Part shown: in pieces, positions 1-52,557 of the stretch
Position numbering within the stretch: the first letter of the stretch is position 1
Layout of the letters: every line of letters starts with the position of its first letter
Source: Zoogloea sp.
GTDB taxonomy: Bacteria > Pseudomonadota > Gammaproteobacteria > Burkholderiales > Rhodocyclaceae
NCBI GenBank assembly: GCA_016703645.1
Contig: JADJBR010000009.1
Location: forward strand, 425,935 to 489,934
Direction: 5' to 3'
DNA length: 64,000 bases
Program-made: the position numbers and the translations under genes
The notes under the pieces: generated by a model
Told to the model about the DNA's origin: nothing
The model's input: the letters and a program-made list of their open reading frames with translations, nothing else
Databases searched by the model: none

Positions 1-70
1 GCGTCGTATAATGGTAATACCCTAGCTTCCCAAGCTAGAGCCGTGGGTTCGATTCCCATCGCCCGCTCCA
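1..70 (+). tRNA. tRNA-Gly(CCC), 5' end cut by the window edge
   Basis: A cloverleaf can be followed. The anticodon stem CTAGC/GCTAG encloses the loop TTCCCAA, giving anticodon CCC (Gly, codon GGG). The T arm contains GGTTCGATTCC. The 3' acceptor strand CGCCCGC is followed by discriminator T and an encoded CCA at 68-70. Only the last three bases of the 5' acceptor strand are inside the window, so about four bases are missing. A terminator follows and then accessory genes, which makes this tRNA a plausible integration site; no att repeat can be tested from this side alone. Confidence 0.93.
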
Positions 71-30477: not shown

Positions 30478-30705
30478 CCCGTGGGGTCGAATTCATTGGC
30501 GATGTTCGCGTTAGGTATGTAAACACTGCCCCTGGCAGGCGCGCCGGGCTTGGTGAGCCTTGCCGTCCGGGGTGGAAGCGCTTTCCAGGCTTTATCCGAA
30601 TGTCGTTGAGTCCCTCTCTTCGACCTTGAACCGGTGAGCGCTTACGGACGGCTTTCCGTTGTACTACGTCACATTGGCCGGGGGCGAGACCCGGCCAACG
30701 ATACG
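30478..30705 (+). repeat. Dispersed intergenic repeat, copy A
   Basis: Begins with a 36-bp core (30478-30513) that differs by one base from the cores at 34986 and 37197. The rest, up to the block GTCACATTGGCCGGG near 30680, aligns in order with the inverted copy C, including CTTGGTGAGCCTTGCC and GAACCGGTGAG. It lacks the hairpin end seen in copy C. It starts 2 bp after the rlmN-like stop. The remaining bases to 30822 hold nothing I recognise. Confidence 0.8.
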
Positions 30706-34985: not shown

Positions 34986-35469
34986 CCCGTGGGGTCGAAT
35001 TTATTGGCGATGTTCGCGTTAAGTGTGGAAAGCGCTTTCGCTTCGACAGGTAAGGCCTGTGCCCTTACTTGCGGGCGCTCCGATGTTTTGCGTATCGTTG
35101 GCCGGGAATTCGCCCCGGCGGGCGACCTTCTTCTTTGCTTCGCCAAAGAAGAAGGCAAGAAAGGCGACCCGGCCACCCCGGTCATTCGCTACGCGAATGA
35201 CTGCCCTGCGCTGCTCCCAGCAGGCGGCCGGCGCGGAACGGGCTTTTCGGATGCACCGAGCCCCTGCGGAACTTGAGTTGGGCACCGGCCCTTGATCACC
35301 TGCATTTCCGGTCCCCTCTGGCGCGCCGACTGGAGGTGATGACGGGCGGAAAAAGGGCTTCGCATGTCTGAGCCCGCAGGGCGAGTTTGCGAAGACCCCG
35401 CCCGGCATTGCCGGAAGGCGGGAACCCCCGAAGGGGGCGCGACAGCGGGGTACGTTTCTTTGCCTACTT
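34986..35469 (+). repeat. Left part of a non-coding repeat element, copy B
   Basis: Begins 3 bp after the mutY stop with the 36-bp core, which is a perfect inverted match to 37197-37232. It contains GCCCCGGCGGGCGACC followed by a hairpin (CTTCTTCTTTG..CAAAGAAGAAGG, about 35127-35153). About 300 bp of unrecognised GC-rich sequence follow, ending in GTTTCTTTGCCTACTT where the IS110-family element has inserted. Open frames inside are short and look non-coding. Confidence 0.75.
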
Positions 35470-35485
35470 ATATGGACGCCTCCCG

Positions 35486-35754
35486 TGTGACAAGCAAGTT
35501 TTTGAGTTTTGGCTCGGCGGATTCATTGCGGTCTTATATCCGGCCTGTTGGTGCAGTCCGGACGCTTGTCCGCTGCGGGCCCTGATGGTCATTCGCGAGG
35601 TTGGGGCTCATCTTTCTTTGGGGCTTTGCACGGGGCTCGCCCAAGGAGGCAATCTGCCTTGCCAACCCACGGTCTGACCGCTTTGCCATCACGTCATCAA
35701 CTCACCTATGCACACTGTGGGGCGTCACCACGCCTTTGATCATGGAGCACGGGC
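35486..35754 (-). ncRNA. Candidate bridge RNA region of the IS110-family element
   Basis: Non-coding 3' region of the element, where IS1111-type elements encode their guide RNA. Read on the minus strand, a segment ATTGCCTCC (35645-35653) resembles the left target TTTGCCTAC. Next comes a 7-bp hairpin (CCTTGGG/CCCAAAG, 35640-35646 with 35616-35622), and then CAAAGAAAGATGA (35608-35620), whose AAGAAAG complements the right target CTTTCTT. Two guides of opposite polarity flanking a hairpin is the layout of a target-binding loop. The matches are short, so this is a hypothesis. Confidence 0.4.
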
Positions 35755-36795
35755 TTACACCGCGCCTGCACTCGCTGCCGGGGGATCTGTCGCTTTCCAG
35801 CTCGCTTCGTAGGCCCGCCCATGCGCCACCAAAGCCCACGCGATGCGTGCCAGCTTGTGCGCGATGGCGACCACCACCACGTTGAAGGGGCGCCTCCCCA
35901 GCAGCGCCACGATCCACGGGGCCGGGTGCTCGCGGCTGGCCAAAGCGCGGGCGCCGTTGATCAGCAGGGTTCGCAGGTAGGCGTTCCCACGCTTGCTGAT
36001 GCTCCCTATGCGCACTTTGCCGCCCGTGCCCCGATGACCCGGAGCAAGACCGAGGCAGCAGGCAAATTCACGCCCGTTGCGCCAACTCGTGCCATCGCCC
36101 AGGGTCGCTGCCAGGGCGGTGGCGCCGAGAACGCCGATCCCCGGGGTGTCACGCAGACGACGGGCGCTTTCCTGGCTCTTGAGCATCAGGCTGATCTCCT
36201 CTTCCATCGCTTGGACGTGCCGTTCGATGTCCGCAAGGGCGAGCAGTTGATCGTCCACCAGCCGCACCATGACCGCCGGCACGGCGTCGTTGATCTCGGC
36301 CCGTTGCTGGGCCAGTTGTCGCAGGCCTGAGTGCCGACCTCGGGGAAGGGTCACGCCAAATTCGTAGAGCAGCCCGCGCAGGGCATTCACCGTCGCTGTC
36401 CGGACGCTGACCCAGTGGGTGCGCATACGGTGCAGGCTGAGCATGGCTTGCTGCTCGCTGCTCTTGACCGCCACCCGGCGGATGTCTCCGTGTTGGGCCG
36501 CCAGCCAGATCCCCCGGGCGTCGGCCGCGTCATCCTTGTTGCCGCTGATGAAGGGGCGGACCTGGTGCGTGGGCAACAATTCGATCTGATGGCCCAGCGG
36601 ACCGAGGGTGCGCCCCCAGTGGTGGGCGCCGCCGCACGCTTCCATGGCGATCCGACCGGCCGGACGCACGGCGAAGAATTCGGTCACTTTGCCGCGCGGG
36701 AGCTTCTTGCGGCAGATCTCTCCCGTGTTGCCATCAACCCAGTGAACCTGGAAAACGTTCTTGGCGATATCCATGCCGTACGTTGTAGCATTCAT
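35755..36795 (-). CDS. IS110-family transposase
   Basis: 346 residues. The N-terminal RuvC-like DEDD domain has its first Asp in YGMDIAKNVFQVHW, Glu in IAMEACGGAHHWGR and the Asp pair in SGNKDDAADARGI. A coiled-coil region follows (residues about 150-210). The C-terminal Transposase_20 domain has LRDTPGIGVLGATALAATLG, CCLGLAPGHRGTGGK and GSISKRGNAYLRTLL with the candidate catalytic Ser. These enzymes act as RNA-guided recombinases without DDE chemistry. The frame is intact, so the element may be active. Confidence 0.95.
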   Translation of the reverse strand: MNATTYGMDIAKNVFQVHWVDGNTGEICRKKLPRGKVTEFFAVRPAGRIAMEACGGAHHWGRTLGPLGHQIELLPTHQVRPFISGNKDDAADARGIWLAAQHGDIRRVAVKSSEQQAMLSLHRMRTHWVSVRTATVNALRGLLYEFGVTLPRGRHSGLRQLAQQRAEINDAVPAVMVRLVDDQLLALADIERHVQAMEEEISLMLKSQESARRLRDTPGIGVLGATALAATLGDGTSWRNGREFACCLGLAPGHRGTGGKVRIGSISKRGNAYLRTLLINGARALASREHPAPWIVALLGRRPFNVVVVAIAHKLARIAWALVAHGRAYEASWKATDPPAASAGAV

Positions 36796-36981
36796 CTCGG
36801 GGACCTCTCGTCGCAGGTGGTTGTTCGGAACTCCACTTTGGCACTTGATGCCGTCAGACGCGAGGTTCCCCCTTCAGCACCGCAGGAGGGGCCTTTCCCC
36901 CTTGCCGAACCGCTTTGACGGTGTCAGCACCGGCAGTCGGTCATTTCGTGGGTGGAGGTGGGCGGGAGGCGTCCATATCAT

Positions 36982-37232
36982 CTTTCTTGTCGTACAACAA
37001 GAAAGTAGGTCGCCCGCCGGGGCGAAACCCGGCCAATGTGACGTAATACAAGGGAAAGCCACCCGCAAGACCTCACCGGTTCGAGGTCGAACAGAATGAT
37101 GCAGCGACGCTCACGTAAAGTCCGAAAAGCGCTTCACCCCCGACAGGCAAGGCTCACCAAGCCCAGCGTGCCTGTCAGGGGCAGGGTTTACATACCTAAC
37201 GCGAACATCGCCAATAAATTCGACCCCACGGG
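36982..37232 (-). repeat. Right part of the non-coding repeat element, copy C (inverted)
   Basis: Reading the minus strand from 37232: the 36-bp core identical to copy B, then about 180 bp colinear with copy A, then GTCGCCCGCCGGGGCGA in inverse. It ends in the hairpin arm ACAAGAAAGTAGG (37004-36992 region) facing CTTTCTTGT at 36982-36990. With the IS110-family element removed, the stem CCTACTTTCTTGT/ACAAGAAAGTAGG would be complete. Confidence 0.78.
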
Positions 37233-52333: not shown

Positions 52334-52345
52334 CCCCGACCTTGA

Positions 52346-52451
52346 TTCGAGGAGCGCTGCAAGACCGCCGGGTGCAATGCCCGCAGTCCCAGGCTCGATG
52401 TCAGTGTCCGTGGCAGCCCATCGCCGTCGGCACCAGCAACCGCGCTCACCC
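52346..52451 (+). ncRNA. S-adenosylhomocysteine (SAH) riboswitch
   Basis: The leader holds the conserved SAH riboswitch blocks in order: TTCGAGGAGCGCTGC, a variable hairpin (CGGGTGCAATGCCCG), then CCAGGCTCGA closing the first stem, an insert, and a final GCGCTCACCCG that pairs with GAGCGC to make the pseudoknot. This class switches genes on when SAH accumulates. The gene downstream, ahcY, removes SAH. After the aptamer, a GC-rich inverted repeat (CCCGTGCC/GGCACGGG near 52473-52490) may belong to the expression platform. The rest of 52217-52327 shows nothing. Confidence 0.88.
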
Positions 52452-52557
52452 GTCCATGCTTTGTTTGCAAACCCGTGCCGGGCACGGGGAGACGTGGTGA
52501 GCCATCAACGTACCGCCACCCGTAGTCCCTTCCCGGCCACACGTTCGAGGAGTTCTC

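What the first reader, a model, noticed from the sequence alone, without database searches (positions are those of the whole stretch)
35467..36992. IS1111-type element inserted in a hairpin stem, with a candidate bridge RNA target-binding loop
Seen: 16-bp perfect inverted repeats inside both ends. The flanks rejoin to a complete hairpin (CCTACTTTCTTGT / ACAAGAAAGTAGG) with a shared CTT. In the 3' non-coding part there is a hairpin flanked by two short segments: minus-strand ATTGCCTCC matches the left target TTTGCCTAC at 7 of 9, and AAGAAAG complements the right target CTTTCTT. They have the opposite polarity expected of the two guides of an IS110 bridge RNA. Known: IS110-family transposases are RNA-guided and IS1111 members carry the RNA 3' of the gene. 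Inference: this RNA targets the repeat hairpin, so the element should recur at other repeat copies in the genome.
Basis: partly seen in the sequence, partly recalled or inferred. Interest (0 to 1): 0.8.

Follow-up and report, generated by a model that had tools for sequence, protein, structure and literature searches.

The report
RNA-guided jumping gene targeting repeated hairpins
This is a small mobile DNA element of a recently explained kind that appears to carry its own guide RNA, and its copies sit at one exact point of a hairpin that is repeated around the host's genome.

Summary
The window carries a 1,515-bp IS1111-type element (35469-36983, transposase on the minus strand). I count 11 copies in the same genome (about 10 independent loci); all 11 lie in one orientation at the same point of the same arm of a repeated hairpin. 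The 3' non-coding region holds a structured RNA: a covariance model built from 18 relatives outside this genome finds 35531-35693(-) at 124.7 bits; the next window hit scores 9.4. Two segments flanking its hairpin match the two target halves, in the IS1111 order. Across 22 distinct elements (this one included) with similar ends, mostly in different targets, these segments co-vary with each element's own target (0 of 100,000 permutations as good). The guide also fits the arm choice: the arms differ from the fifth base right of the core; 11 of 17 target arms are occupied, 0 of 16 opposite arms. A third segment (ATATA + core) tracks the core dinucleotide and may be a donor guide, with exceptions. 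New member of a known kind (seekRNA/bridge-RNA elements). Expression and activity were not tested.

The parts
35469..36983 (-). complete IS1111-type insertion sequence, 1,515 bp
   Evidence: ends set by comparison with relatives that have similar termini but mostly sit in different targets; 11 copies in own genome
35755..36795 (-). DEDD transposase gene, 346 aa
   Evidence: NF033542 285 bits, PF01548 and PF02371 above cut-off; D9, E52, D89, D92 invariant in 12 aligned sequences (catalytic roles recalled)
36963..36976 (-). left subterminal inverted repeat ATGGACGCCTCCCG
35472..35485 (-). right subterminal inverted repeat CGGGAGGCGTCCAT
36977..36983 (-). 7-bp left extension, core AG + ATGAT
35469..35471 (-). 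3-bp right extension ATA
35531..35693 (-). predicted seekRNA/bridge RNA
   Evidence: covariance model from 18 relatives outside this genome: 124.7 bits, E 1e-26, next hit 9.4 bits; structure covariation above 500 of 500 shuffles
35643..35652 (-). right-target guide TTGCCTCCTT, complementary to the IS top strand (first guide, 5' side of the internal loop)
35612..35618 (-). left-target guide AAGAAAG, same sense as the IS top strand, includes the core AG (second guide, 3' side of the loop)
35533..35539 (-). candidate donor guide ATATA-AG (same as right end + core)
   Evidence: dinucleotide in this motif follows the left core in AG, AA and GA elements, with exceptions given in the text
35458..35468 (-). 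core + right target half, AG-TAGGCAAAG
   Evidence: same in the own-genome copies apart from one variable base and one copy lacking a base
36984..36990 (-). left target half ACAAGAA
36998..37009 (+). opposite arm of the hairpin, CAAGAAAGTAGG followed by TCGCC: same left half, core and first four right-half bases, not used by any of the 11 copies

Best explanation
An IS1111-group insertion sequence whose 3' non-coding region is transcribed (inferred) into a seekRNA/bridge RNA. The RNA has a long stem closing an internal loop, and the loop is split by a short hairpin. [quoted passage not shown] Together they read a roughly 14-bp target (AAGAA-AG-NAGGCAA) lying on one arm of a repeated hairpin. 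The DEDD transposase with this RNA excises the element as a circle and inserts it at that point in one orientation (inferred from the known family). A further RNA segment, ATATA+core, may pair with the element's own right end (donor guide, inferred).
For: Transposase family, invariant DEDD residues, distant sequence similarity to the recombinases of IS621 and ISCro4. 11 of 11 scored own-genome copies at the same point and orientation; about 10 independent loci, since L006 and L009 share a flank. Six uninterrupted copies of the exact site. Guide-target co-variation, 22 distinct elements, window's own included: left target -5..-1, 96 of 110 matches against permuted mean 38.7, maximum 65; right target 1..7 with spacer 0-3 allowed in real and permuted sets alike, 125 of 154 against mean 70.2, maximum 96; 0 of 100,000 permutations as good for each. 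An unanchored search of whole non-coding regions (24 elements) gave 0 of 100,000 too. Structure: 33 pairs, 97.0% of cells paired, 85 double-change cells against 22.5 shuffled, 0 of 500. Model from other genomes hits the window RNA and 11 places in the genome, which are the 11 copies. Arm choice 11 of 17 against 0 of 16, Fisher 6e-5; with 10 of 16 against 0 of 16, 1.2e-4.
Against: No expression or activity data. The single-sequence fold is only modestly better than shuffled (z -1.6; 14 of 200 shuffles fold as well). At a fixed spacer the right guide is best or tied for its own target in only 13 of 22 elements; with a free spacer 18 of 22. The left guide is best or tied in 19 of 22; L104 and L114 match at 1 of 5 left positions (in L114 probably because its left end is read one base out of register). 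L104 misfits on both sides. The scored positions were chosen after looking at the aligned guides, and the permutations do not allow for relatedness among the elements. The structure was derived from the same alignment on which its pairs were counted. One own-genome copy (L011) sits in a target lacking one base. Some copies in this genome have interrupted transposase frames, so present activity is unknown.
Confidence: 0.93

Rival explanations
1. Target choice is made by protein or DNA structure: the transposase recognises the hairpin (cruciform or single-stranded), and the guide matches are incidental.
For: All 11 own-genome insertions are in a hairpin arm, and some relatives also sit in repeat palindromes.
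Against: The opposite arm has the same stem sequence but is not used, 0 of 16; in 11 of 55 right flanks scanned the element sits just before an ATG reading frame instead (not tested for hairpins); guides co-vary with targets.
Confidence: 0.03
2. The copies share flanks because the hairpin repeat plus IS was duplicated as a unit, not because of targeted insertion.
For: L006 and L009 share 98% identity over 1,153 bp on one side.
Against: Apart from that pair, flanks beyond 350 bp share stretches of at most 198 bp, except L007/L010, where the compared flank contains the neighbouring IS copy itself; empty repeats exist; the repeat variants around the copies differ. Not every side of every copy could be tested (contig ends, L009 and L011).
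Confidence: 0.02
3. The RNA reads only the target; the ATATA+core motif is a structural or conserved sequence, not a donor guide.
For: The AA and GA cores occur mainly in one sub-clade, so there are few independent changes; no second donor guide was found; in PMC11187229 an 82-nt seekRNA sufficed for ISEc11 movement, and in this element the motif lies about 70 nt beyond the left guide; L028-L030 have ATATG in the motif but ATA at the right end; genome G245 has GA in the motif but GT, GG, GA, GA at four right junctions; L022 and L098 differ from the motif at the right junction.
Against: The motif dinucleotide equals the left core in AG, AA and GA elements, L114 being the exception (there it equals the right core), and L103 changes the motif and the right extension together; PMC11208160 reports potential donor-binding nucleotides in many predicted IS1111 RNAs (passages read).
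Confidence: 0.45

Closest known systems
IS1111 family with seekRNA (ISEc11, ISPa11, ISKpn4, ISPst6; PMC11187229, parts 1-5 of 9 read)
   Same: subterminal inverted repeats, 7-bp and 3-bp extensions, non-coding region 3' of tnp, top-strand guide before bottom-strand guide, one target and one orientation, natural re-targeting between relatives
   Different: another repeat target; a candidate donor motif that follows the core is proposed here
ISPa11, ISPpu9, ISPpu10, ISPsy8 inserting into REP sequences (PMC1525189, abstract and outline only)
   Same: an IS with specific insertion into a repeated palindrome
   Different: other repeats and hosts; here the guide is identified and the unused arm gives a built-in control
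IS621 bridge RNA (IS110 group; PMC11208160, passages)
   Same: structured RNA with split target guides including a core dinucleotide; distant recombinase relative
   Different: RNA lies 3' of the gene, guide order reversed, long subterminal repeats
IS900 (PMC8141618, passages)
   Same: its reported motif CATGNNNNNNTCTCCTT resembles, on the other strand, the targets of the start-codon group seen among the relatives
   Different: different IS and host; not the target of the window element

Membership tests
IS1111 family | DEDD transposase, 330-350 aa, IS110/IS1111 type | tested here: met
   346 aa, NF033542 285 bits, D9 E52 D89 D92 invariant in 12 sequences
IS1111 family | subterminal inverted repeats with 7-bp left and 3-bp right extensions | tested here: met
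   (taking the repeat as 14 bp)
IS1111 family | longer non-coding region downstream of tnp | tested here: met
   286 nt at 35469-35754, 3' of the gene
IS1111 family | one specific target, one orientation | tested here: met
   11 of 11 scored copies
seekRNA/bridge-RNA guided element | structured RNA with two target guides in an internal loop | tested here: met
   covariation, independent model hit, guide co-variation
seekRNA/bridge-RNA guided element | top-strand guide precedes bottom-strand guide (IS1111 order) | tested here: met
   35643-35652 precedes 35612-35618 on the minus strand
seekRNA/bridge-RNA guided element | RNA made and bound to the transposase | not testable with these tools
   needs RNA sequencing and purification
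seekRNA/bridge-RNA guided element | donor guides matching the element ends | tested here: inconclusive
   ATATA+core follows the left core with exceptions; no second donor guide found
IS1111 family | circular intermediate with abutted ends | not testable with these tools
   needs PCR on DNA
REP element (host repeat) | abundant extragenic palindrome linked to a REP-associated tyrosine transposase | tested here: inconclusive
   repeated hairpin confirmed; 4 Y1_Tnp matches in the genome; whether they belong to this repeat, and whether it is extragenic throughout, was not tested

The most novel reading that the evidence does not exclude
IS1111-type guide RNAs are true two-way bridge RNAs: beyond the target guides they carry a left donor guide (ATATA + core) that changes together with the core dinucleotide in the target guide and at the left junction. 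One set of termini can thus be re-aimed by swapping the two loop segments, here between sites in hairpin repeats and sites just before start codons.
Probability: 0.42. Interest if true: 0.6.

Novelty: new member of a known kind. Interest (0 to 1): 0.42.

Why it matters
It is a clean natural test of RNA-guided insertion. Within one genome the unused arm of the same hairpin serves as a control: it shares the left half, the core and the first four right-half bases, so bases 5-7 read by the right guide probably decide the arm. The relatives form a set of natural re-targeting events with similar ends, useful for guide rules in IS1111 systems, and they bear on a question left open in PMC11187229: how IS1111 ends are recognised.

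Tried and rejected
Rfam at gathering threshold gave no match to the guide RNA, and at E up to 1 one chance-level hit on the other strand (16.7 bits, gathering 70). The single-sequence fold was weak; the comparative structure was used instead. CCATC (helix 1, 3' arm) was considered as the second donor guide: it complements GATGG of the left end, but L109 and L112 break the expected change at the fifth extension base, so a stem explains it better (read by eye). The three bases ATG after the left guide match the left end in 86% of elements, but equally for other elements' ends, so this shows nothing. Copies of the RNA outside the IS: none among the 11 hits at E up to 0.01 (150 of 2,184 first-look candidates were scored). 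Literature: searches; the listed titles and abstracts do not concern this element, but the element has no name to search for, and the library lacks most subscription journals.

Rows dropped before counts: of 64 parsed rows, duplicates, internal false ends (right flank beginning TCAAC) and rows lacking one end were dropped and one row kept per distinct element, leaving 24. L105 and L009 were then removed as near-copies of L102 and L048, leaving 22. The model alignment A2 used 18, leaving out L048, L028, L034 and L098 besides L105 and L009. L054 and L097 were not among the 24. L111, L052, L031 and other loci without a recognisable end were not used. Own-genome fragments L014 and L015 were not counted as copies; C9:116917-118188 and 119933-120183 were read as one split copy, and C7:169-1000 and 1001-1602 as one hybrid copy. 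Of 135 plasmid records matched (40 listed), 13 were fetched.

Full report
What is there. On the minus strand the window carries a 346-aa transposase of the IS110/IS1111 type (35755-36795; NF033542 285 bits, PF01548 and PF02371). The presumed catalytic residues D9, E52, D89 and D92 are invariant in 12 aligned sequences (their roles are recalled from the family). The only two solved structures matched by sequence are the transposases of ISCro4 and IS621. A perfect 16-bp inverted repeat lies inside the ends. Comparison with relatives that have similar termini but mostly sit elsewhere puts the ends at 35469 and 36983: 7-bp left extension AGATGAT, 14-bp subterminal repeat, 3-bp right extension ATA, and target core AG on the IS strand. 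This fits the 7/3 rule given in PMC11187229 (parts 1-5 of 9 read).

Other copies. The host genome (4.99 Mb, 10 contigs) holds 11 copies by my count (one is read as split by other DNA, one as a hybrid at a contig start; two short fragments are left out). In IS orientation all 11 read ...CAAGAA-AG-[IS]-AG-NAGGCAAAGAA..., except one that lacks one base in the right half. L006 and L009 share a flank, so I count about 10 independent loci. The exact 18-base target also occurs uninterrupted 6 times, and 12 further sites carry one or two mismatches. Occupancy is 10 of 16 for exact sites and 1 of 13 otherwise (Fisher 0.003). The opposite arm of the hairpin (AAGAAAGNAGGTCG) has the same left half, core and first four right-half bases; it occurs 16 times and none of the 11 copies is in it. 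Arm choice therefore probably rests on the bases that the outer part of the right guide reads.

The RNA. Across 22 distinct elements, this one included, the 3' non-coding region folds into a stem closing an internal loop that is split by a hairpin, followed by a GGCC stem. The 33 pairs are 97.0% paired against 84.5% shuffled, with 85 double-change cells against 22.5 (0 of 500 shuffles; slid controls reach at most 46.1% paired and 22 double-change cells). The structure was derived from the same alignment, which favours it over the slid controls. A covariance model from 18 relatives outside this genome finds 35531-35693(-) at 124.7 bits; the next window hit has 9.4. In the genome the model finds 11 places, which are the 11 IS copies.

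The guides. TTGCCTCCTT (35643-35652) lies on the 5' side of the loop and AAGAAAG (35612-35618) on the 3' side. In shuffles of the region TTGCCTNCTT never occurs and the pair never occurs (0 of 5,000; AAGAAAG alone in 215). In the 22 elements the left guide matches its own target at 96 of 110 positions against a permuted mean of 38.7. The right guide matches at 125 of 154 against 70.2, with the spacer to the hairpin free over 0-3 nt in real and permuted sets alike. No permutation of 100,000 was as good for either. At a fixed spacer the right guide is weaker, 99 of 176 against 49.9, and only 13 of 22 elements have their own target as best or tied; with a free spacer 18 of 22; for the left guide 19 of 22. 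L104 misfits on both sides, and L114 on the left. The positions scored were chosen after seeing the aligned guides, and permutation ignores relatedness; an unanchored search of whole regions in 24 elements gave the same result. The order, top-strand guide first, is the IS1111 order of PMC11187229.

Donor side. The scanned relatives keep GGCCGGATATA (up to 2 mismatches) followed by a dinucleotide that equals the core at the left junction: AG in most, AA in L034, L036, L045 and L098, GA in L053, L054 and L097. L114 has GA in the motif and at the right junction, but AA by my reading of its left end. L103 changes motif and right extension together; L028-L030 change the motif only. Right junctions agree less well: L022 has GG against AG, L098 AT against AA, and four copies in genome G245 read GT, GG, GA and GA beside a GA motif. 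This looks like a left donor guide, but I found no second donor guide, and the AA and GA cores are concentrated in one sub-clade, so it stays a proposal.

What is known. RNA-guided target choice by IS1111 elements, natural re-targeting and insertion into REP hairpins are published (PMC11187229; PMC11208160, passages; PMC1525189, abstract and outline). The element is a new member of that kind. Transcription, RNA processing, binding and movement are inferred, not shown.

Noticed in passing
L102, L103, L105, L034, L036, L045, L053, L073, L081, L085, L089 (right flanks): In 11 of 55 right flanks scanned the element sits 6-10 nt before an ATG that opens a frame of at least 80 codons, often with a Shine-Dalgarno-like left target half (GGAG, GGAGG); L109, L098, L097, L051, L112 and L077 also have an ATG close by, but no such frame was found in the DNA held. 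Their guides seem aimed at ribosome-binding site/start-codon junctions, as the motif reported for IS900 suggests.
   Followed up: partly
L028-L030 and the own-genome repeat (L002, L016): The right target of several relatives (AG-CAGCGCAGGG and near forms) resembles another stretch of the repeat region in this genome (CCCTGCGCTGCT), so related elements may use different points of related repeats.
   Followed up: no
34995-35021 (+), 37197-37223 (-), 30487-30513 (+): A 27-bp repeat TCGAATTTATTGGCGATGTTCGCGTTA flanks the hairpin cluster in inverted orientation; 8 copies in the genome with up to 2 mismatches.
   Followed up: partly
35126-35155: A second, diverged hairpin (CCTTCTTCTTTG / CAAAGAAGAAGG) lies about 310 bp from the IS, an unoccupied variant of the repeat.
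   Followed up: no
L008 / L013 (G000:C9:116917-120183): One copy of the IS seems to be split by about 1.7 kb of other DNA.
   Followed up: no
52343-52454 (+): SAH riboswitch, 44 bits.
   Followed up: no
1-67 (+): tRNA cut at the window start by the Rfam model; ARAGORN reports none there.
   Followed up: no
L072, L076, L080, L084, L088, L091, L093 (genome G532): Seven right ends of a relative, each starting about 100 bases from a contig end, beside AGCGCTGATTNATTCC, in L088 an obvious palindrome: another repeat hairpin that may be targeted.
   Followed up: no
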